In this document: positions 11,515-62,891 of the stretch, in pieces
How the letters are laid out: every line of letters starts with the position of its first letter
Numbering within the stretch: position 1 is the first letter of the stretch
NCBI GenBank assembly: GCA_033030425.1
Contig: JAUFSD010000014.1
Coordinates: 682,001 to 746,000, forward strand
Origin: Verpa conica
Taxonomy: Eukaryota > Ascomycota > Pezizomycetes > Pezizales > Morchellaceae
Length of the DNA stretch: 64,000 nucleotides
Direction of reading: 5' to 3'
The notes under the pieces: model-generated
Told to the model about the DNA's origin: nothing
The model's input: the letters and a program-made list of their open reading frames with translations, nothing else
Database searches by the model: none
Program-made: the position numbers and the translations under genes

Positions 11515-12517
11515 ATGGCCGACGTTTCCTTTGCACGCGAGCAAGCTTTGGGTGAGTGATCGGCGTTTCACAGACTGTTGTCTCACTAACATTTAAATAG
11601 AGAACTGTCGTGTGCTCTTCAGCCAAGAAGTACAAATCACTATTATATCACGAATTAATAGGCGCAATTCGGCATATAATTCCACAGTCAGAGATTATAC
11701 TGATTACGCGGCCGTTGTTCTGCCAAAAGTATGTTCTCTCGGGTCAATGGTAAAATCCGGTGCCGGGAAAGTACTTTTCGAGACCCAACTTCACCCTTCA
11801 TATGATGAGGCTATCTGGGAATTGGTGCGTATAAGCGCAGATAAAATAGGAAGGATATTGCAGCCACCCAGTTCTGAGGTGTTACATTACTGGATCGATA
11901 AATCGGCAATCCCCTCTATGTGCAAGATCATTGTCCCGGATGATGCCCAGACAGAGTCCAAGACCACACAAACAACTACAGGGGAGGACAAGGCAGCAGA
12001 AGTGAATGTATTGCGAGAGGATATAAGCAATAAGCGAGTCGGGGACCTGACGGCAGGAAAGGGAAGGATCTGGCGGGTAGTGGGATACACACCATCTGGC
12101 GAACCTTGTATCGAAGAACATGAGCCGGAAGCCTCGAACATCAAGACCCTGTCCTCGTCACACGTCTCTACCTTTAACTCAACAACCGACTTCACCCCAG
12201 GCACTTCTGTTGTAAGCGACAGTGGCACTATTACGCTATCGGCGTATGACAACCACTTGCCGGAAGAGTGCACGAAGAAACTCGAGGAGGCAAATAAAGA
12301 AATTGCTGAACTGCAGAGGAACATTGAAGAGGCGAATAAGGAGATTGGAAGACTAGAACAGGTGGTACTCGACGCGGATGCCCTATGCAAAGTCCAACAG
12401 AAAAAAATCGAGGACCACGAAGTCGAAAAAGAGCAATCAAAAGTCGCCACGGAATTACTGAGTAACGAATTATCCTCACTCAAAGCATCGATCCGCGCAA
12501 TCTCGGGAGTCTTGTAG
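11515..12517 (+). CDS. Array family copy A: uncharacterised protein with invariant WRVVGYT-SGEP motif and coiled coil
   Basis: Exon 1 is only 37 nt (11515-11551, ending ...REQALG before splicing); intron 11552-11600 (GTGAGT..AAATAG); exon 2 11601-12517; 317 aa. I do not recognise the family. Order of parts: N-terminal domain beginning ENCRVLFSQEV (residue 13), with AAVVLPKVCSLGSM and IDKSAIPSMCKI; a Thr/Gln-rich linker (TTQTTTGED); the invariant motif WRVVGYTPSGEPCIEEHEPE coded from 12071; the patch FTPGTSVVSDSGTIT; and a C-terminal coiled coil (KKLEEANKEIAELQRN...). No signal peptide or membrane segment, so it is probably intracellular. Unlike C-E it stops right after SLKASIRA and lacks their charged tail. 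First member of a same-strand array. Confidence 0.85.
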
Positions 12518-13240
12518 GTTGATAATAGATTATGTCTTTATTAGGAACCTGGCTCCCTGTATACTAGTATAGCTAGCACAATAAGTTATGCATACCAGGA
12601 ATTATTCCTAGGATAGCACTGAAGTCATGAAAGAACGATTATGTGAAGAACTGGAGTTGAGGAGGTTAGTTTACTTTCTAATAAAGGTTTGGGAGGTAAA
12701 TTCTGGGCTATTCGTTTTGTACCCTTGAGAGTTCCTATAACCGTTCTATAGGTTTTCCCCTCCATATCATAATAAATTAAGCCAGGCTAGGGCTATGGCT
12801 ATAATTGTAGTTTTGGTATATATCTTAATATTCTTAGTGTTACCAGCAGACTTGGCAGGCTTTATTAAGGCTGTCTATAAGTCTACCCACATTTTGTTTG
12901 TTAGTACATATACATGCAGTCACAAAGAGAAATTAAACTATTAATTGGAACGAAATTAATGAGCACAATGGAGAGTGATTTATTTTGTGAGCCATGGAGG
13001 TTTGTAGGGATTATTCTGTTTATTTTAGTATATATTACGGGGATTGTTTTCAGGCCTTCAGCAGCTGTGGTTCTGGCAACCAGCAAAGCCTTGCAGAATG
13101 GTTAGAACTTGGCACATCGGATACTAAAACTCACCTCATCACCTCGCTTTAACCTTCAACCAAGCAACAAGGATCAACAGACTACCGAGCCTATCACATA
13201 TCTACTACTGGGCCATAGTAATAGAGCATCCTTGACTACT
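12518..13240. other. Intergenic between array copies A and B
   Basis: AT-rich, with no supported gene. TTAAGGCTGT at about 12863 resembles the upstream element of copies C-E, but lies much further (about 380 bp) from copy B's start. A short open frame at 12914-13105 with a hydrophobic middle has no recognisable identity. Confidence 0.45.
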
Positions 13241-14157
13241 ATGAGTACACGCGAGCAAGCTCTAGGTACACGATCCCCGCCTCTGTATTCCTCCCACACT
13301 AACAGTTCAACAAGCGATCGGCCGAGTACTGTTTAGTCAAGAAGTGGAAATCATTGTTTTATCACGTTTCTATGAACGCACACTAGTAGCGCCTAGCGGA
13401 TATAAATATGTCGCCGTTTTCGTGCCAAAGAGATGCTCTCTCAACTTATTATTACAATCTGACAGCAGCGAGATCTTTTCGAAACCCAAAACCTTCCGAC
13501 TCCCGTGATTCCGCCATCAACGACTTGTTGGAGATAATGGAAAAGGCGATGGGTGGAATCTTACCAGTACCCAATTCCGATGGGTCCAACTGAATCGATA
13601 AGACGTTAATCCCCGACATGTATAAGCCTACTACACCGAGTGATACCCAACCGGCGGAAACTTCTGTTAGGCCAAGCTGTACACAGAAAATTGCAAGGGA
13701 TAATAAGGTAGGAAGGCAGCTTACGGCATACACACCATCTGGTGAGCCTTATACCGAAGAGCACGAATTAGAAACTCCGAATACCGAGGGTTCGTCTGCA
13801 CTAGCATATGATCCCGCAATTGGCTCTGGGACTGACTCCACGCCAAGAACTTCAGTTGTGAGCGACAGTGGTACAGTTACTCTATCATTCTGTAACGAAC
13901 CCCGCATGGTAGGAGGTGGGAGGTTCGAAAGAGGGTGTACGGAAACCGTCCGTCTAGAAAAGAAGCTCGCGGATGCAAACATGGCCATGGGCAGACTAGA
14001 ACGGAGGCTGCTTGATGCAGAAAGCCGATACAAGGACCAGCAGAAGCAGGTCGAGGGGTACAAAGCCGAAATAAAACAATCAAAGACCACTATAGAATCC
14101 CAAAATAACGAAATAATCTCACTCAAAGCATCAATCCACGCATTCCAAGCCACTTAG
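13241..14157 (+). pseudogene. Array family copy B, decayed (frameshift plus stop)
   Basis: The tiny first exon survives (13241-13265, ending REQALG), but the intron acceptor region has changed: the TAG|AGAACTG seen in copy A is not present. The homologous frame restarts near 13310 (RVLFSQEVEIIVLSR, then VFVPKRCSLN). At about 13470 the stretch coding ILFET in other copies is one base short, shifting the frame to a TGA at 13508. The other frame continues the homology (AINDLLEIMEKAMGGIL) until an in-frame TGA at 13591-13593. A third open stretch (13618-14157) holds a damaged conserved motif that keeps YTPSGEP but has lost IWRVVG, plus RTSVVSDSGTVT and the coiled coil, ending SLKASIHAFQAT. It most resembles copy A. 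Several independent lesions make a sequencing error unlikely. Confidence 0.8.
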
Positions 14158-14667
14158 TCGATTGAGAGGCGGTATTGTGAAGAAGTGCTAGAATAGTTAG
14201 TAGTAGAGATTACAAGCCCTCTTGAAATAGGGTCAATTCACTATGACATATTCTTTTTGTTTATCAAACATATTAAGGGCTTTATGAGTAGCGTGGTAGC
14301 TGAAGCTGAGGGTTCGCGGGGTGAGGCCCATGCACTATTCTCCATGTAAACGTACTAGGAGGGACGAGACCACATATATATATTGCATGGAATAAAATAT
14401 GTTCCTTTACGCACAATGTTTTTAAGGAGAGTAAATTTAAAAGGATTCGCATTACTACCTTCTGTTATGATTACCTTTCTTAATGAGTTATTAAGAGTTA
14501 TGGTAAATTTTTAAGGCCGCCAGCTGTGGTCTTAACAGCTGAGGTAAGCAGCTTAACATATCCCCCCACTCTGAACCCGTCACAAGAACTGGGAGATCAA
14601 TTTCCAAATCTATCAACCGTCCATCGATCAAACTATAACAGTAATTATATCTTCTCAAAACTACATA
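14158..14667. other. Intergenic between array copies B and C
   Basis: AT-rich spacer. It contains the shared upstream element TTAAGGCCGC (14511-14520) and paired CAGCTG hexamers (14521-14526 and 14538-14543) before copy C. No gene is seen. Confidence 0.5.
14511..14520 (+). promoter_or_regulatory. Shared upstream element of the array (copy C)
   Basis: TTAAGGCCGC lies 157 bp before the ATG of copy C. The same or nearly the same word occurs 139-158 bp before copies D and E, and a C-rich CCCCNCACTC-type stretch follows it in all three. This may be a binding site or simply part of the duplicated unit. Confidence 0.4.
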
Positions 14668-15793
14668 ATGAATACTATACGCGATCGAGCTCTAGGTAAG
14701 CGATCCCTACCTTTATAGTCTATCATCCTAGGCTAACTACCAGCTAGAGAGCTGTCGAGTGTTCTTTAGTCAAGAAGTACAAATTATTACCCTATATCGT
14801 ACCCACAGTAGGATAGCCTATAAAGGTACCTACGGAAATGGTATCCCCTTTGATCCCTACAACCAACAATATAATGCGTACACCGCCGTTGTCCTGCCAA
14901 AGTCATGTTCTCTCAAGTCATTGGTACACTATGACGCGAGCGAAATTCTTTTCGAGACCAAATTTAATGAGAATTTTAATTCTCGTGATGATCCCATCGC
15001 TAGCATACTGGACATGATTGAAAATAGTATGGGAAAGATCTTGCTAGCACCTAATTCCGAGGAGCCGTCCCCCCGGATCGATAAATCGGCAATACCCTCC
15101 ATATGTAAGATCACTACATCGGACTCAGGTGATACTCAGAAGGAGCCGGCAGAGTCCCCTGATACGACAGACCATACACAAATAACTATAGAAGGGGATA
15201 GTGTGGGGGATGATACGGTGGCAGGGTCGACTGTACTGGACGCAGGTGATAGATCGGCCGGGTCTCAGGACTTGATAGCACAAAAGAGAAGGATCTGGCG
15301 GGTTGTGGGATACACATCATCCGGCGAGCCCTGTATCGAAGAACATGAACCAGAAGCCTCGGACGCCCGAAAATCATTTCCGTTATCGCAAAACTCTACA
15401 TTCGACTCCAGAACTGTCTTCACGCCAGGAAATTCCGTGTTAAGTGATAGTGGTACAGTTACTCCATTAGTATTTGAAGGCAATTCGGTGGCAGGGTGTG
15501 CAAAGGAACTCGAGGAGGCGAATAAGGAAAACACTAGACTACAAATAGACCTCGAGAAGGCAAATGGGGCCCTCGAAGAGGCAAAAGATGAGACTGAGAG
15601 ATTAACACAAGAACTCCTTAACGCAAATGGTCTGTGTGCGAGGTTAGAGGGGAAAATGGAGGAGTATCAAATTACCATCGGATCCCTGAATAACGAAATT
15701 GCATCCCTTAAAGAATCAATCCGCATAGACCAAGAAACTCGGGCTATTGAGAAGCAGATGGTAGCAGAGTTTACGAAGAGCTTTTTGAAATGA
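14668..15793 (+). CDS. Array family copy C: uncharacterised WRVVGYT-SGEP motif protein
   Basis: Exon 1 14668-14695 (28 nt, MNTIRDRAL then phase 1); intron 14696-14747 (GTAAGC..GCTAG); exon 2 14748-15793; 357 aa. Layout as in copy A: ESCRVFFSQEVQIITLYR, YTAVVLPKSCSLKSL, EILFETK, MGKILLAP, RIDKSAIPSICKI; a long acidic and Thr-rich linker; WRVVGYTSSGEPCIEEHEPE from 15296; FTPGNSVLSDSGTVTP; then a coiled coil (KELEEANKENTRLQIDLEKA...). The C-terminus adds IDQETRAIEKQMVAEF, shared with copy D and absent from A and B, so C and D look like the closest pair. No known domain; probably soluble. Confidence 0.85.
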
Positions 15794-16230
15794 AGTCTAA
15801 AAATGGTTTTATGGTGGGTAGAAGAATTAGGGACAAATCAGAGATGCTCTGGTTAGTGTTGTTTACTTAGAGTGTGACTGGATTCACGAGATTTTCTTTT
15901 CTTTTTTTCTTTAGCTTGAATTCATGAGATAAATATATAGTATATATATTACTATAATATATATGCTACTGTCAAGAGAAAAAAAACTAGTAAAATTTGG
16001 AAATAGTGCATAGTAGGCTTAATGTTACATATATTCTCGTATGTATGCTCATCTTATTCACTTGGCAGCCCCCCCAAAATGGAAATAATGTTTAAGGCTG
16101 CTCCAGTAGCTGTAGCCTTAACCATCCCATCGCGCCTCATTCCCCTCACTCTAGCCTCACATCTGTCGCAAGAAGAGCTGCCATCTCGTCGACCAAGCTA
16201 TCTTTAATCCCCCAAAATAAAGACCTAGCT
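15794..16230. other. Intergenic between array copies C and D
   Basis: Contains T-rich and AT-repeat stretches (15895-15965) and the shared upstream element at 16092. No gene is seen. Confidence 0.5.
16092..16101 (+). promoter_or_regulatory. Shared upstream element of the array (copy D)
   Basis: TTAAGGCTGC, one base different from the copy C and E words, lies 139 bp before the ATG of copy D. It is followed by CCCCTCACTCTAGCC, which copy E also partly shares (CCCCTCACTCACTTA). Confidence 0.4.
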
Positions 16231-17352
16231 ATGCCTGATATTAACTATGCACGCGAGCGCATTTTAGGTAATAAACCATGGTTTTCACAGCTAGCTTTTC
16301 GTCTCACTAATAGTTAGCTAGAGAGCTGTCGCCTATTGTTTGACCAAGAAGTCCGAATCATTACTTTGGTCCGTTACTACAACGGTGTATCTCCGTTTGA
16401 TAACCTATATGGCGATTATTACACTGCTATTGTCCTACCAAAAGATTCTTCTCTCAAGTCGGTAGCTACCAACGGGATTCTTTTCGAATCCGAAAGACCT
16501 AATAGTAACCGTGATCTTGCCATCTGGGGACTATTGGATACGATCGAAAGGAAAATGGGAACGGTATTTGGACACCCACCCAAATGGATGGGTTCGTCCC
16601 ACTGGATATCGGAGATTAGCCCCATAAGCAGTATGTGTATCTCTGGCTACCACATAAAGACAGCAGAGCCTTCTTTTGTGACGGTCTCTACACAAACCAC
16701 AGAGGAGAATGAAATGGAGAGTGATGAAGTGGTGGGAGCAACTATAATAGGCAGCGGGCGTAAAAGTGTTGAGGAAACCATATCACGAGGAGGAAAGATC
16801 TGGCGGGTTGTGGGATACACATCATCCGGCGAACCTTGTATCGAGGAGCATGAGCCAGAAACTCCGAGTAACAATGACCCGATCACATTACCACAAAGAC
16901 GCACAATCGCTAGCAATTTCGAGGGCCACTCGTCTGAGTATCCCGTTTTTGACTCGGGAAATATCTTTACACCAGGCACATCCGTTGTGAGCGATAGTGG
17001 TACAATTACTCCATCGGTATATGACGACCACTTACCGGCAGGATACGCAAAAAAACTTGGGGACGCAAATATGGAAATCATTATGCTACGAAGAGACCTT
17101 GGGGAGGTAAATGGGGCTCTCGGTGACGCAAAAAAGGAGATTGGAAAGCTAGAACTAGAGCTGCTTGGTGCAAATTACCGGTCCAAGATGCAAATCGATG
17201 ACTACGAGGCCGAAAAAAGGCAATCACAAATCGCTACTGAATCTTTGAGTAAGGAGTTAGCCTCTCTCAAAGAATCAATCCACCTAGACCAAGAGGCCCG
17301 GGCTACAGAGAAGCAGGCGGTAGCAGAGTTTATGAGAAGTTTTATGAAATAA
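16231..17352 (+). CDS. Array family copy D: uncharacterised WRVVGYT-SGEP motif protein
   Basis: Exon 1 16231-16267 (37 nt, MPDINYARERIL then phase 1); intron 16268-16321; exon 2 16322-17352; 355 aa. N-terminal domain: ESCRLLFDQEVRIITLVR, YTAIVLPKDSSLKS, ILFES, IERKMGTVF. The usual KSAIPSMCK is altered here to SEISPISSMC. The linker holds VSTQTTEENE. WRVVGYTSSGEPCIEEHEPE starts at 16801, identical in protein to copy C and nearly so in DNA. FTPGTSVVSDSGTITP follows, then a coiled coil and the tail DQEARATEKQAVAEF as in copy C. Function unknown. Confidence 0.85.
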
Positions 17353-17808
17353 CAGATAGCAGTGGGTAGATGGGATTAGGTTATATTATGTTTCATAGTT
17401 TTATTTGGCATCAATAGTGTTGGAGAGTGTGGCTATAAGAGCTATCGTTCTCCACTCAAGTGCTGCCTAATTAACCACCCTACACGGGCATGTACCTTTA
17501 CGTATACTATTTTTAAAATCGATCAGGGGAAAGGATTAAGAACATATGAAGAAAGATATGTAGTAAAATTGTTATATATTACCTATATTCCTATTTAATA
17601 TCTCTACTTTCTTCTTTTTGCTTTTTTTGGCGGGCTATTCTATAACATAGTTAAGGCCGCCTCAACATCGCATCACTGTAGTATCTACATCAACCCCGTA
17701 CTATTCCCCTCACTCACTTAACCCCTCAAGCCCTTTACAAGAAGGATCACCATCCACCGACAAAGCTGTTATAGTGAGCATACTTTGATTCTCAAGGAGA
17801 GTTTAACT
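17353..17808. other. Intergenic between array copies D and E
   Basis: AT-rich spacer with a T-rich tract at 17610-17635 and the shared upstream element at 17651. No gene is seen. Confidence 0.5.
17651..17660 (+). promoter_or_regulatory. Shared upstream element of the array (copy E)
   Basis: TTAAGGCCGC, identical to the copy C word, lies 158 bp before the ATG of copy E, again followed by a C-rich CCCCTCACTCAC stretch. Confidence 0.4.
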
Positions 17809-18981
17809 ATGTCTGAGGTTCATTATATAGAAAAGCAAATACTAGGCAAGTGATCCCATTTTTGTGGTCTGTCTCAAGCTAACCATTGATTAGAGCAGTG
17901 TCAATTGTTCTTTAGTCAGGAAGTAAAGATCATCACCTTACAGCACTCCCTCGACAGCATTCAAAGCCAATTCTTTCACGGCAACAGTAACGCTTACACA
18001 GCCATTGTCCTGCCAAAGACTTGCTCCCTGAAATCGATAACACAATCCGATACTAGCAAAATCCTTATCGAATCCGTCAATTCATATGACAGGGCAAATG
18101 CCATCTACAACTTACAGTTCAAAATCAATACGAAGATGGCGCAGATATTTCCAGTAAAACTCGACGTCCAGGGATCTTATATCAACAAATCGGCGGTCCA
18201 CGAAGCGTATAGTCTCATCGCCCCAGATAACACCCAGTCAGAACAAGTGGAACCTCCTGTTGTGACAAGCTCCACACAAACAACAGCGGAAATCAAGGAT
18301 GATATAGCGGAAGATACTACACTAAGCACGGGTGGTAAGAGAGCTGAGGAGCCGATAAAACGGAAAGGAAGGGTCTGGCGGGTTGTGGGATATACACCAT
18401 CCGGCGAACCTTGTATCGAGGAGCACGAACCAGAAACCCCGGATTCGCCCACACCGCCGCCACAGAGACACATAACCGCTAGTTCCGCCGGGAGCTGCTC
18501 ATTGGAATACCTTTCTTTTGACAACAGAACAAAATTTACACCAGGCACCTCAGTTGTGAGCGACAGTGATACAATCACCCCATTGCTAAATGACGAACAC
18601 TCGCCGGTGGAGTGCGCTGAGAAGCTTGAGGAGGCAAATAAAGAGATCACTCGCCTAAAAAAGGAGCTTTTAAAGGCAGAGAAAGAGATTGAAACCTTAG
18701 AAAATAACATCGAGGAGAAAGACAAGGACATGGGGAAAATACAGAGTAGTTTATTCGACGTAGAAGCCAAATGTTTTAACCAAGAGAAAGTGATCGAGGA
18801 CTACGAAACCGAGAAGGCACAATCGGCGGCTACTATAGAATCTCTCAGTAACGAAATAGCTGCCCTCAAAGAAACTATCCATGCTGCTCAAGATGCTCAG
18901 GCCACTACGAAAAGACTTCATGAGGAAGAGCTAGAGCAGATCTTGGCAAATCTTATGCGTACACTAGGCAGGAGTACGTAG
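17809..18981 (+). CDS. Array family copy E: uncharacterised WRVVGYT-SGEP motif protein, GC-AG intron
   Basis: Exon 1 17809-17845 (37 nt, MSEVHYIEKQIL then phase 1); intron 17846-17893; exon 2 17894-18981; 374 aa. The intron donor is GCAAGT, not GT, at exactly the position where copies A, C, D and G have GT, so it is a real GC-AG intron or a disabled one. Protein: EQCQLFFSQEVKIITL, YTAIVLPKTCSLKSI, INKSAVHEA, linker SSTQTTAEIKDD, WRVVGYTPSGEPCIEEHEPE from 18376, FTPGTSVVSDSDTITP, then the longest coiled coil of the array (KKELLKAEKEIETLENNIEEKDKD...). The tail AAQDAQATTKRLHEEELEQ diverges from C and D. Function unknown. Confidence 0.83.
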
Positions 18982-20016
18982 CCGTAAAGATAGGTTCCAG
19001 ATGGCCCTTAGAGTAAGGAATAAGGCTAGTAGATAAAGAGGTATGAACTGGTAGGGCTGCAATACCTCGTATTTTCTGTTGTTTAATGAGCATCAAATTT
19101 TTTAGTTTCCTGGGTTTATTTAATATATCCAGAGGAGGGCTGTTTGTGACCCAAAATCTCTTTACCTCTCACATTTTTGTATAATATGAGACCTTATGAG
19201 TATTTATTTCCCCGTTTTTCTTTGAAGGTTAACTAGTGGTTTGATATGATTTGGGTTCTTTATCATTCGACTTTCTGAGGGGAGAGGATTGTTTGTTTCG
19301 TTAATTATATTATATTACTCAGCTCGGAATTGATCAATTTTTTTCTGTACGTAGAATAACTACGTAATGTGCTCACTAGTGGCTCCATAGATTTATGAGG
19401 ATTCAATATTTATTTTACTTTACCGCTATTACGGACTACCAGGTAACTACTTTGGATTCGTATTGTTTTTCATATAGAGCCCGCTCCCCTATTTGCGAGA
19501 CCTGATGCACTTCCTGAGTGAAAGGCTATGCCAAACACTAACCAGAAATAGCATACGACTTATACGACTTTTGACTTGACTCCCAACTTAGCTTTTGACT
19601 CTTCTGTCCGCTATTCTCTAGGAAGCTAATAAGTGGTGACTCCCTACAAATATTTTAGAATATACAGGTCTAGTCCCGTTCCCAGCCAATACACATAGCA
19701 TTCTACATTTTCTCTTTAGAACTCTAGTGGATATTGGTCGATCATCATCTAATATTCTTAAATAGGCTTGAATATTTACGACCCCATTCTACTCTAGAGA
19801 CTATACACCAATGCTGCCGTAGAGAACCCACGAGAGATATGTGGTTATTGAACAAAGAGTAGAGTCCTTCGATGTTCTAGAACAGGCATTCATGAATCGT
19901 CTCCGGAACACCTATATTTAAAGCAAAGATTTTACCAAAGTCGATCACAAAACACATCCTTACGGCTTCAACCTAACTACAAAGCCAAGCCACCGAATCC
20001 CAAGCGTTATTCAACT
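18982..20016. other. Intergenic between array copies E and F
   Basis: About 1 kb, AT-rich, with no long open frame on either strand and no recognisable element. Confidence 0.55.
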
Positions 20017-20350
20017 ATGGATACACCCGATGACCTAAGCAACACCCGCAAACAGATCCTAGGTAAGCACTAACCCTCATCCTTAGTTACGTTTATTATC
20101 TTAAAAAAAACTTTTACTAGAAAACTACCAATGAATGTTCGGCGAAGAATTACAACTAATTACATTCCTAGAGCGAGATTACTACTACACCACCATTGTC
20201 GTACCGAAAGCATTCTCTCTCATGACCATTACTAGTGATTATTCTTACAAGGACCCAGGCCAAAATAAGAGATAGAGATACAGCAATATACGAGTTGCTC
20301 GATCAAATTAACCGAATCTAAAATTGGCAAAATTTTACAGTTTGATTCTC
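20017..20350 (+). pseudogene. Array family copy F, truncated remnant
   Basis: First exon intact (20017-20062, 46 nt, ending TRKQILG) with a good GTAAGC donor, intron 20063-20120 and a normal TAG acceptor. Exon 2 reads ENYQ, then TGA at 20132-20134, then MFGEELQLITFLERDYYYTTIVVPKAFSL until a TAG at about 20273. Weak homology continues with frame changes to KIGKILQFD near 20345. Nothing resembles the conserved central motif or coiled coil, so the 3' half is gone. The stop replaces the Trp seen in copy G (CRWLFG). The F/G-type features (longer exon 1, LITF) make it nearer to distant copy G than to its array neighbours. Confidence 0.8.
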
Positions 20351-20568: not shown

Positions 20569-20932
20569 ACATGTTCTGGCCCGTTGGGGGGACGCCCTCA
20601 ACGGGCAATCTGTTAGGTGCCCTACCCGTTGGAGGAACACCCATGGGCGAGCCAACAAAGTATAGCCTAATTAATACAGGGACACTCAAAAGAATAAGAA
20701 TAATAGCTAGAAAATATAAATCTATCTTGAACTATATTTGTGATTTTTTTGGATTTTATTCTATGCTTTATTAAACTTGTAGGAGGCTGGAAGCTTTGTT
20801 CTGAGTGTTTTTTTGTAGCCAGGATTTTTTTTATGTTGTTACCCATACAGGGGACGTAGGTTGGCCCATATAGAGGACGTCCCTCCAACAGGTTGGCCCG
20901 TTGAGGGGACGTCCCCCCAACGGGCCAGAACA
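20569..20932. mobile_element. Palindrome-ended MITE-like element 1
   Basis: About 365 bp. The left end ATGTTCTGGCCCGTTGGGGG recurs as its reverse complement at the right end (up to 20932), with imperfect matching for roughly 45 bp. Each end is itself partly self-complementary (GGCCCGTTG ... CAACGGGCC). The AT-rich interior has no protein-coding capacity. A diverged relative lies at 37.9-38.6 kb, sharing interior words such as AATAATNGCTAGAAAATAT. No clear target-site duplication is seen. Best described as a non-autonomous terminal-inverted-repeat element. Confidence 0.65.
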
Positions 20933-43247: not shown

Positions 43248-44563
43248 ATGGATGGAGATGAAAAACCCATGAGCTCCCAGCGCCGGGAACAGGTTCTAGG
43301 TAAGTAATTCCCCTCTCTCTCCAATTCACTCTTCAGCCCTCTCCTAACAATTTCTTAGAGAATTGTAGATGGCTCTTTGGCCAAGAGGTTCAGCTCATTA
43401 CGTTCTACCACACATTCAACAACGGGGTCTCAAACGCCTGTACAGCGCTTATCTTGCCAAAGTCGTACTCGCTGCACTCTCAATCTCAAGAGGACTTCAA
43501 CGCCAAAATCCTACTGAAGGCCGAATGCAAAGCCAAGGGGAAGAAATGGGTGACCCGCGAGGATGCGATCAATAATCTGCTATGGGCAGTTGAGAGTAAG
43601 GTGGGGGAAATACTACAGCCAGATACAAAGGGAGAGTTCCAGGTCAATAAATCAGCAATTCCAAAGACATGCAAGAAGAAAAATGAGACCGAAATCCCGA
43701 TGGGTCCTGAAGATGTTAGAAAGACACCGATAACACCTATAGATAAGGTCGGAGAGCCCATATACGAGTTAGACAGCAGGAGTGTACAGGGCGAAAAAAT
43801 ACACAGGCTAGGAGGAAATAAGAAGATCTGGAGGATTGTGGGATACACGTCGTCAGGCGAGCCTTGTATCGAAGAGTATGAACCTGAGGGGGCTACGGAC
43901 ACCAGCCCATTATCACAACCAAGATATTCAATTTCCGGCGCACAAAAGTCTCGTTTAGCTACAGCTACACCGCCGTCAAGATATGTAGTTCTTGGCACAC
44001 CAAGAACCCGTTTAAGTACAGCTGAATATGCTCCATCAAATACCGAGACAGATGCAACCTTCTCCACGCCTGGAACCCCGGTTATGAGCGACGTCGAAAC
44101 AGCCATCGGATCCGATGGCCTCGGAGACGATGCAGCAAACTCCCGCGAGGATAATAGACGGCTCAACAATGTTCTTATTCTTGCAGCCCGCGCAGGTGCG
44201 AAGTTCGCTGAGCTGCAAGGCAAGCGTGCTTCAGTCTCTGGCGGAGACCCACAAGCGCCTGCGACTCCTACCAGAAATTATCAACAAATACTAGATGAAC
44301 AAGAATTAGCTGTTAAGGACTTCTTGCACTGGATAAAGCAAAAGAACCAGCGTATAATGTCCCTCGAGATGGAGCTTAAAGAAGCTCAAATTGCTAGGGA
44401 CGCTGGTATCCGAATGTGTGCTGAGGTCAAGGCGCAGCTGAAGAAGGAAACCTTGCGGGCGGATGAAAGTGAAGCGAGAGAGATGGACACAAATGCGCTT
44501 CTTGAGAGACTTTTTAGGAATAGGAGTGATTCAAGATCTGTGAGATCAGGATTAGAAACATGA
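43248..44563 (+). CDS. Dispersed array-family copy G: uncharacterised WR-VGYT-SGEP motif protein
   Basis: Exon 1 43248-43299 (52 nt, ending REQVL then phase 1); intron 43300-43358 (GTAAGT..TTAG); exon 2 43359-44563; 418 aa, the longest member. It lies 24 kb from the main array with five unrelated genes between. N-terminal domain: ENCRWLFGQEVQLITFYHTF, CTALILPKSYSLHSQ, AINNLLWAVESKVGEILQP, VNKSAIPKTCKK. The motif is WRIVGYTSSGEPCIEEYEPE from 43829, with two conservative changes against A-E. The second patch is STPGTPVMSDVETA. A repeated segment (SRLATATPPSRYVVLG / TRLSTAEYAPS) is unique to this copy. The C-terminus is helical, with a predicted coiled coil ending in a Ser/Arg-rich tail. Function unknown. 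Confidence 0.85.
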
Positions 44564-60816: not shown

Positions 60817-62891
60817 ATGTCAAGAATGACTTCCTACGTACGTACTTTCCACATTCCATACATACTCCCCTGGTGCATACCCTTTTTGGTCGTCTCCCCT
60901 TAGGTTTTTATCTCTAGCTTTCTGTCTGCATTTCCCCCCCAAGGCACTAATAAAATATTCAGAAACACTCTAGGATACCTACCAAGCTCAGCCAATTCGA
61001 TCAATACAAACTTGATACTAATTTCTACGACAACTGCTACAAACATACTATTCCCTGTGGGCCCAGTGCCGATCTCACCCATCCACACTCCCCGGGAGGG
61101 TCAAGGATAGAAAAATGGACCAGTTCCAAAACTCTTGGTGAAGGCGCATTCGGAGTAGTACGGCTACAGAAAGAGGAGAAAGGAGCAGTCAGAGCAGTGA
61201 AGCAAATTTCCAAAAAAGAAATGCTATGGAATACAAGAGAACTACAGGCCTTGACAAAACTGAAAGAAGTAAGAATCTCTCAGCTGTTTATCTCAGTTAA
61301 GGGGATATAGTATTGATAGATTATACCTAGTACCCCCAGCACTTTGTAGAGCTTTCTGGATGGTTCGAGGATGACAAAAACATCTATCTCGCTATGGAGT
61401 ACATTCAGTTTGGCGATTTGATGAGCCTTATCGATAAAGGTGATATTCTTGAGAATGGTGCAAGATCAATCACAAAGCAAATACTCCAAGGCCTAGAGAT
61501 CATGCATGAGAATAAATTCTGCCATCGTGATTTGAAGCCACAGGTTAGACATACTAAGGAAAAGATTGAAGATAAGGAGTTAACACCAGCACAGAACATC
61601 CTAGTGACCTCACTGTCGCCAATCACTGTGAAAATCAGTGACTTCGGTGTTACAAAACAGACATCAGATGGCGCTGAATTACGAACAATAGTAGGAACAT
61701 CTGGCTATATTGCACCAGAGATCTTGGGTTTTCTCGATACTGAAAACTCAACGTATACCAACTCCGCTGACATTTGGTCACTTGGATGCCTACTTTATGT
61801 CATGATGACCAACCAAGTCCCATTCCAGCATAATCAGGAGCTCCTCAGATACATTCGAGGGAAGGTTCTATTTCCCACACGAAAACTCCTAGAGAGAAAT
61901 GTGAGCCTAGGTGCAATAGCTTTTATTCAAAGCCTGATAAAGCCATATCCAAAAGACAGGTTGACTGCAGAGGAGGCGCTAGAGGAGCCGTGGTTAAATC
62001 TCGATGGAAGAGATCAGGAACAGATGCGAAGCAATACCAGCACGAGTACTTTGGGAAAGGTGGTCCCAAAAGACCCCCAGATAGGGAATGATAAGAATGT
62101 ATCAGGTGGTTAGTCGCATGCCTAATAGTTAATTTTTATCCTAGTTTGATAGTGAAGAATCCAAAGAAGCTAATAAACGATTATGTTTAGACACATGGTC
62201 ATATAGCTCTGCAACTACCATTTTTCATAATACTACACATGAAGATGTGAAGGCTGTAGGACAGCCGTGCCGGAAAAACACAGCAGACACGTATGGGGAG
62301 CATCAAATACTACCAAGCGTAACCATAAAAGAATTTCTTGCAGGAGCAGCAAGCGCCATGGCCAGCGGCAGATCCGAAACAATTCTAAGCCTAGGGACGC
62401 AGAGAGGACATAGAGAAGGCGATAAAAACCCTACCCTACTAGCCCAAAAAGAGATTACAACACTAGTGGAAAAATTCATATCAAGTGGTTGGGAGAAATA
62501 CACTACACTACAGCAATTACCCCAACACGAGCACGGGGGGACTATTAAATTATTGGAAAACAGGGTGGTCACCGTGGTGAAGGGTAGGAAGGGAGTGGTG
62601 ACCTATTTCGTACTGAAAGGCTCAGTTGAAACATTAGTAGAAGCTACGAACGCTATCGCAAGAAGCAAAGATGTGGTAGGAATCACTGTGGAGGATAATC
62701 TGGGACAGAAAAATTTCTGTATAACGGCTACAAGCAAGAGGGAACGAGCTACTGTATTGAAAACGGTAGAGCGCTTTGCAGATGCAGCTCGGGTGAAAGC
62801 CAGAAGCAAACTAAGACAGATGGGATGTCTAGCTATCTGTATGAATCGTGGCAAGCTTGCGAGTCTTTTTGGAAAAGAGAAAAGGCAGTGA
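60817..62891 (+). CDS. Serine/threonine protein kinase with long C-terminal extension
   Basis: Five exons (60817-60837, 60963-61268, 61340-61543, 61595-62098, 62145-62891) give 593 aa. The kinase motifs are complete: Gly loop LGEGAFGVVRLQ, VAIK-type lysine in VRAVKQISKK, HRDLKPQN rebuilt across the 61544-61594 intron, DFG in SDFGVTKQ, GTSGYIAPE and DIWSLGCLLYVMMT. The GWFEDDKNIYLAMEYIQFGDLMSL stretch fits the CAMK-like, Chk2-related kinase group common in Pezizomycotina. The N-terminus (YDNCYKHTIPCGPSADLTH) precedes the catalytic domain. After it, about 250 residues with no recognised domain include a conserved-looking ITTLVEKFISSGWEKYTTL and KSRKGVVTYF-like segments. Exon 1 (7 residues) is the least certain part. 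The 51-nt intron inside the catalytic loop is in frame and stop-free. Confidence 0.85.

What the first reader, a model, noticed from the sequence alone, without database searches (positions are those of the whole stretch)
11515..20350. Tandem array of an unrecognised gene family (six copies, four intact), plus a dispersed seventh copy
Copies A-F lie head-to-tail on the plus strand over 8.8 kb, with copy G at 43248-44563. All share a tiny exon 1, a phase-1 intron, the pattern ExC[RQ]xxFxQEVxxI, [TA]A[IVL][VI]LPKxxSLxS, a KSA[IV]-type patch, the WR[VI]VGYT[SP]SGEP motif, the TPGT..SD patch and, mostly, a coiled coil. I know of no named family with this layout. Local amplification with a variable N-terminal domain and fixed central motif is what one sees in recognition, allorecognition or effector-target families, but that role is speculation.
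Basis: partly seen in the sequence, partly recalled or inferred. Interest (0 to 1): 0.85.

Follow-up and report, generated by a model that had tools for sequence, protein, structure and literature searches.

The report
Old morel-only tandem gene family
A morel-like fungus carries a row of old duplicated genes, plus scattered relatives, for an undescribed kind of protein, probably intracellular, built from a small folded head, a nearly unchanging 22-residue tag and, in most, a coiled-coil-like tail; their job is unknown, and the evidence so far does not favour fast-changing self-recognition genes.

Summary
Four intact genes (A, C, D, E), one pseudogene (B) and one truncated remnant (F) lie head to tail at 11515 to about 20320, with an intact paralogue G at 43248-44563. 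They share a tiny exon 1 (8-17 codons), a phase-1 intron at one codon and an N-terminal domain of about 110 residues; A-E and G also have a 22-residue motif (RIWRVVGYTxSGEPCIEEHEPE), decayed in B. I add four dispersed loci (contigs 9, 11, 14, 16) with the same N-domain and intron but no motif: at least 11 loci in this 45.8-Mb genome. No significant Pfam, PDB-sequence, prokaryotic or viral relative was found. A capped search of 5.8 billion proteins returned one named relative, a Morchella sextelata orthologue of G, and five unnamed proteins. The array is old (dS about 1.0-1.6), with pairwise dN/dS 0.33-0.41 and 0.02-0.26 in the motif. Against the M. sextelata orthologue, G's N-domain (84%) and motif (87%) are conserved and the rest is not (33-37%), which speaks against a fast-evolving recognition head. 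A moderate-confidence model gives the head a dsRBD-like order, unproven. I read it as a morel-lineage family of oligomeric adaptors; partner and process unknown.

The parts
11515..12517 (+). Copy A, intact: exon 1 11515-11551, intron 11552-11600, exon 2 11601-12517; 317 aa
   Evidence: gene model; E 1.0e-57 to copy C
12065..12130 (+). 22-residue motif of copy A (RIWRVVGYTPSGEPCIEEHEPE)
   Evidence: Alignment; positions worked out from the model and the sequence
13241..14157 (+). Copy B, pseudogene: two reading frames, in-frame stop at 13591-13593, decayed motif, altered splice acceptor
   Evidence: Three-frame translation; matches (E 4.9e-14 and 2.4e-4; 1.2e-8); alignment
14668..15793 (+). Copy C, intact: exon 1 14668-14695, intron 14696-14747, exon 2 14748-15793; 357 aa
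   Evidence: unnamed orthologue P0001 88% identical
15290..15355 (+). Motif of copy C
   Evidence: positions
16231..17352 (+). Copy D, intact: exon 1 16231-16267, intron 16268-16321, exon 2 16322-17352; 355 aa
   Evidence: E 2.5e-61 to C
16795..16860 (+). Motif of copy D
   Evidence: positions
17809..18981 (+). Copy E, intact: exon 1 17809-17845, GC-AG intron 17846-17893, exon 2 17894-18981; 374 aa
   Evidence: E 9.1e-52 to C
18370..18435 (+). Motif of copy E
   Evidence: positions
20017..20320 (+). Copy F, truncated remnant: exon 1, intron and the start of the N-domain, with stops; the end is approximate
   Evidence: translations; repeat family D8 copy at 20186-20226; exon-intron alignment
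43248..44563 (+). Copy G, intact dispersed paralogue: exon 1 43248-43299, intron 43300-43358, exon 2 43359-44563; 418 aa
   Evidence: orthologue of M. sextelata H6S33_008352 (P0004)
43823..43888 (+). Motif of copy G
   Evidence: positions

Best explanation
This is an old gene family, so far seen only in morel-like fungi, of probably intracellular modular proteins. Shown by sequence: an N-terminal domain of about 110 residues, a variable linker, a nearly invariant 22-residue motif that usually follows basic residues and ends in acidic ones, a TPG..SD patch and a heptad-patterned C-terminal helix (weak in G). The array and G share this layout. Four further loci (contigs 9, 11, 14, 16) carry the N-domain with the same kind of exon 1 and intron but no motif. 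Inferred history: the array descends from a G-like gene by ancient tandem duplication and is kept by purifying selection, while B and F decay. Inferred mechanism: the proteins work as coiled-coil oligomeric adaptors. The invariant motif, modelled as a short beta hairpin, docks on one conserved partner shared by the motif-bearing copies, and the N-domain, which differs between paralogues but is well conserved in the two orthologue pairs examined, binds a copy-specific ligand or partner. The partner and the cellular process are not known.
For: Intact reading frames and conserved splice sites. dN/dS 0.33-0.41 over the whole protein in the 6 array pairs; in the motif 0.02-0.26 over all 10 pairs, against 0.20-0.70 synonymous differences per site there. 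Motif found in this genome only in A, B, C, D, E and G (the 25-residue query found all of these but B). Best heptad windows in A, C, D and E lie in the tail and are reached by 0-6 of 500 shuffles of that window; the model of the M. sextelata protein has long tail helices at pLDDT up to 94. No strongly hydrophobic N-terminus or transmembrane segment: highest 19-residue mean hydropathy 1.35 over the 8 proteins examined, of which P0001 and P0003 lack their start. Array clade with P0001 and P0002 supported 96/97 apart from G. P0001 keeps copy C at 88%.
Against: No expression, interaction or knockout data; the adaptor role rests on architecture alone. The model is of moderate quality (mean pLDDT 57.5, pTM 0.29, 11 sequences) and the motif hairpin has pLDDT of only about 60. 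Heptad evidence is weak in G (25 of 500 shuffles reach it) and in P0003 (19 of 500); in P0004 the best window is not in the tail; and the shuffle test flatters, because the best window was chosen first. The low synonymous difference between the D and E motifs (pS 0.20) could reflect gene conversion.
Confidence: 0.4

Rival explanations
1. Nonself-recognition (allorecognition or heterokaryon incompatibility) genes: tandem copies with a variable N-terminal domain sense partners and the coiled coil triggers a response.
For: Tandem array with birth and death and N-domain divergence between paralogues. Published M. importuna incompatibility mapping says further, unidentified loci must exist (section 16 of PMC8940278).
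Against: No region with pairwise dN/dS above 1 where it could be computed, and N-domain 0.44-0.52 in the 5 computable pairs. N-domain 84% and 88% identical in two orthologue pairs. Duplicates old, not recent. The two mapped M. importuna genes (765-773 aa with 8 introns; 1311-1324 aa with 2 introns) do not match these genes in size or introns (317-418 aa, 1 intron); sequences were not compared.
Confidence: 0.12
2. dsRNA- or Dicer-linked proteins: the N-domain is a diverged dsRNA-binding-type fold and the coiled coil oligomerises the protein on RNA or on a silencing enzyme.
For: Alpha-beta-beta-beta-alpha order in the model. By my reading of the titles, 25 of the 50 VIA-align rows are dsRBD, Dicer, DRB or RNase III chains, and 6 of the top 20 Foldseek rows are dsRBDs. 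G and P0004 have a basic KAKGKK stretch before helix 2.
Confidence: 0.12
3. Decayed mobile-element genes or a selfish local repeat: copies persist because they spread, not because they serve the cell.
For: Dispersed copies exist; reverse-transcriptase-like ORFs lie near the contig 11 copy (by eye); two of six array copies are broken.
Against: Copies keep their intron, so are not retrocopies; dN/dS is well below 1; the direct repeats listed in the array (15 families) fall on the genes and their splice regions, and the one tandem repeat lies beyond it; few copies were found. Terminal inverted repeats were not searched.
Confidence: 0.05
4. Secreted effectors acting on a plant or microbial neighbour.
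For: Lineage restriction and tandem amplification resemble effector families in general.
Against: No hydrophobic N-terminus in the 8 proteins examined, 2 of which lack their start; coiled-coil-like tails and basic residues before the motif suggest an intracellular place. No signal-peptide predictor was run.
Confidence: 0.03

Closest known systems
Morchella sextelata uncharacterized protein H6S33_008352 (P0004)
   Same: Orthologue of copy G: N-domain 102 of 121 positions identical, motif stretch 20 of 23
   Different: Linker 16 of 49 and the rest 67 of 182 identical; no function recorded; no array-type protein of a named organism was returned
dsRNA-binding domain fold (HYL1, DRB4, TRBP, Staufen, Loquacious, RNase III)
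   Same: Order of helices and strands and weak structural alignment of about 51-68 residues
   Different: No sequence match, low Z, recalled RNA-contact motifs not seen as such; membership not shown
Morchella importuna vegetative incompatibility genes mimpvic32 and mimpvic33 (PMC8940278)
   Same: Genus; mimpvic33 likewise has no known domain
   Different: 765-773 aa with a CorA domain and 8 introns, and 1311-1324 aa with 2 introns, against 317-418 aa with 1 intron; sequences not compared

Membership tests
dsRNA-binding domain (dsRBD) | Sequence match to the dsRBD family models | tested here: inconclusive
   None of 9 N-domains matches a dsRBD model at E up to 10, but HMMER's filters drop most matches above about 0.1
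dsRNA-binding domain (dsRBD) | Alpha-beta-beta-beta-alpha fold | tested here: inconclusive
dsRNA-binding domain (dsRBD) | RNA-contact residues (GPxH loop, KKxAK at helix 2; recalled) | tested here: inconclusive
   Not seen as such in the 9-row alignment: loop of variable length and helix starts such as SRDDAI, TREDAI, SSDGAI; G alone of the 9 (and P0004) has a basic KAKGKK before helix 2. The residue mapping rests on an unproven fold
TFIIH subunit Tfb5 | Significant profile similarity to Tfb5 | tested here: inconclusive
   HMMER E 0.26 at best. hhalign probability 0.9%, score 14.5, in another register over 17 columns; 2 of 100 column shuffles reach that score. Only three Tfb5 rows were used, two of them recalled
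Fungal heterokaryon incompatibility genes | Within-species allelic diversity under balancing or diversifying selection | not testable with these tools
   No population data; pairwise dN/dS below 1 between paralogues where computable
Fungal heterokaryon incompatibility genes | Known domains (HET, NACHT, WD repeats, HeLo; recalled) | tested here: not met
   No such Pfam match for A, C or G in full (E up to 1) or for the N-domains of 9 loci; D and E were scanned for the N-domain only
Secreted effectors | N-terminal signal peptide | tested here: not met
   Highest 10-residue mean hydropathy in the N-terminal stretch is 1.17 over the 8 proteins examined, 2 of them without their start; a hydropathy check, no dedicated predictor
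LC8 (dynein light chain) clients | TQT-type linear motif in a disordered linker | tested here: inconclusive
   TQ[TIA] in the linker of A, C, D, E, P0001, P0002 and P0003, not in G, P0004, P0005 or P0006 (the last two are partial); shuffled linkers hold it in 4-18% (the stretches taken for E and P0002 ran into the N-domain); the recalled stricter pattern fits A alone

The most novel reading that the evidence does not exclude
Morels have evolved their own family of Dicer-partner-like proteins: a dsRBD-type head that no longer reads RNA in the usual way, a fixed docking hairpin and a coiled-coil tail, tandemly multiplied so that each copy brings a different client to one shared silencing or RNA-handling machine.
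Probability: 0.06. Interest if true: 0.75.

Novelty: new variant of a known kind. Interest (0 to 1): 0.42.

Why it matters
It defines a protein family with no listed domain, a 22-residue motif under strong constraint inside otherwise drifting sequence, and a set of paralogues and orthologues to compare. That makes a partner search by motif pull-down directly feasible. If an RNA-silencing or recognition role were found, it would give morels, whose mapped incompatibility genes do not fully explain their incompatibility, a new molecular system. As it stands it is a good lead on an orphan family, not a demonstrated system.

Tried and rejected
Tfb5 relationship: five Tfb5 sequences (E 0.26-0.35) and one adhesin fragment (E 5.3) were the only PDB-sequence hits of the N-domain profile. 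Set aside: hhalign gives probability 0.9% in another register, though its score is reached by only 2 of 100 column shuffles. The genome's own Tfb5 is elsewhere (contig 1).

P22 tailspike hits of a single N-domain (E 0.8-1.1) and an RNA-binding protein 41 hit of the longer profile (whole sequence 0.089, best stretch 3.3): taken as chance. A possible twelfth locus on contig 20 (E 0.09, two stops): I viewed the sequence and did not recognise the exon 1 and intron layout; taken as chance without a further test.

Viral or bacterial origin: 40 viral and 31 prokaryotic stretches matched the one peptide pattern each scan used, and none encodes a relative.

Literature: searches listed 15, 15, 12, 1, 10 and 8 papers; no listed title or start of abstract concerns this family. 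The motif strings WRVVGYT and SGEPCIEE and the tag H6S33_008352 occur in no held paper. PMC8940278: abstract and sections 9, 11, 15, 16 and 17 read; all others seen only as search listings.

Limits: the second protein search was swamped (7996 candidates; it missed P0004) and is not used as negative evidence; the first also scored only the 7997 candidates sharing most words. Structure prediction of the N-domain alone was interrupted and the tool later switched off. Copy number in other Morchella genomes could not be examined.

Full report
Where it is. The window is part of contig 14 of an unnamed 45.8-Mb, 25-contig genome. The only named organism with a relative of these proteins is Morchella sextelata, so I call the genome morel-like; its species is not determined. 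The array lies mid-contig between a Nup192-family gene and a mitochondrial DNA polymerase gene (Pfam).

The observation. Gene models A, C, D, E and G are intact. Each begins with a tiny exon 1 and a 48-59 nt phase-1 intron in the codon before the conserved N/S/Q-C. Copy E's model has a GC donor. Copy B is broken by a frame change and a stop and its motif has decayed. Copy F is a remnant. The relation is far beyond chance (E 2.5e-61 to 9.1e-52 within the array, 1.2e-20 to G).

The family is larger than the finding. Searching the own genome with G found four further N-domain loci: contig 9 (E 1.1e-10), contig 11 (5.5e-9), contig 16 (2.1e-8) and contig 14 at 866641 (8.4e-8). Searches with the N-domains of these four returned only members of this set and one weak hit that I take as chance. 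By hand-made models all four have the same kind of exon 1 and a phase-1 intron at the same codon; in the contig 14 copy that codon reads as alanine. Three of them (contigs 9, 11, 16) lack the motif and end in or near a helix-like stretch of the type RxxIR[DE]E[VL]xLA; the contig 14 copy is truncated. Because the tool scores only the best candidates, 11 loci is a lower bound.

Sequence anatomy. The N-domain of about 110 residues is followed by a variable linker, a 22-residue motif, a second linker with a TPG..SD patch, and a heptad-rich tail that is weak in G. The motif is found in this genome only in A, B, C, D, E and G. TQ[TIA] occurs in the linker of 7 of 11 proteins checked; it resembles an LC8 site but shuffled linkers hold it in 4-18% of cases, so I do not lean on it.

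Selection. All 10 pairs of A, C, D, E and G were compared. Whole-protein dN/dS is 0.33-0.41 for the 6 array pairs; against G it is 0.33 for E and cannot be computed for A, C and D because synonymous sites are saturated. N-domain dN/dS is 0.44-0.52 in the 5 array pairs where it can be computed, and not computable against G. Motif dN/dS is 0.02-0.26. The first linker is on the whole the loosest part (0.32-0.96). Array dS is about 1.0-1.6. These are pairwise averages and cannot exclude selection at single sites.

Orthologues. An unnamed protein, P0001, is an orthologue of C (88% identical; end branches 0.02 and 0.07), so the array copies split before those two lineages did and C has not been homogenised with its neighbours since. 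G and M. sextelata P0004 share 84% of the N-domain and 87% of the motif but 33% of the linker and 37% of the rest. The N-domain is thus the conserved part in that pair, the opposite of what a hypervariable recognition head should show. In the closer pair C and P0001 all parts are alike (N-domain 88%, linker 83%, motif 96%, rest 89%), so that pair says little. Alleles within a species remain untested. Array members form a supported clade (96/97, with P0001 and P0002); 5 of 10 inner branches are open and long branches meet.

Distribution. Six proteins were returned at E of 0.01 or less from 5.8 billion: P0004 (M. sextelata; its cluster stands for 6 sequences on 2 contigs) and five without a name (only the 7997 candidates sharing most words were scored). 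The N-domain of G alone returned only P0004 among 35 candidates. No array-type protein of a named organism was returned, which may mean absence or missed gene calls.

Function. The evidence best fits intracellular oligomeric adaptors with one conserved docking motif; that step is inference. Allorecognition is possible but disfavoured by the orthologue pattern of G and by the lack of any computable dN/dS above 1. The paper on M. importuna incompatibility (PMC8940278; abstract and sections 9, 11, 15-17) maps two genes that differ from these in length and intron number and states that others remain unknown.

Verdict.

Noticed in passing
L046 (own genome C14:861800-871700): The truncated N-domain copy at C14:866641 sits inside a local cluster of four long, similar-looking ORFs; 2 of the 3 scanned match Pfam BTB/POZ above its cut-off, and they have hydrophobic C-terminal stretches by eye: a second local amplification about 140 kb from copy G.
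   Followed up: partly
L044 663-2525 and 3606-4427: Reverse-transcriptase-like ORFs lie just upstream of the contig 11 copy; recognised by eye, not by a family search.
   Followed up: no
window 20858-20921: A two-copy 32-nt repeat in a stretch (20571-20930) with GGCCCGTTG-type units on both strands (by eye), looking like a small mobile element or its trace, next to remnant F.
   Followed up: no
window 61394-62891: A protein kinase ORF (Pfam Pkinase 7.6e-42) is followed by an ORF of 214 aa without a Pfam match at E up to 0.001.
   Followed up: no
window 17846-17893: The modelled intron of copy E has a GC-AG boundary while those of A, C, D and G are GT-AG; no transcript data.
   Followed up: partly
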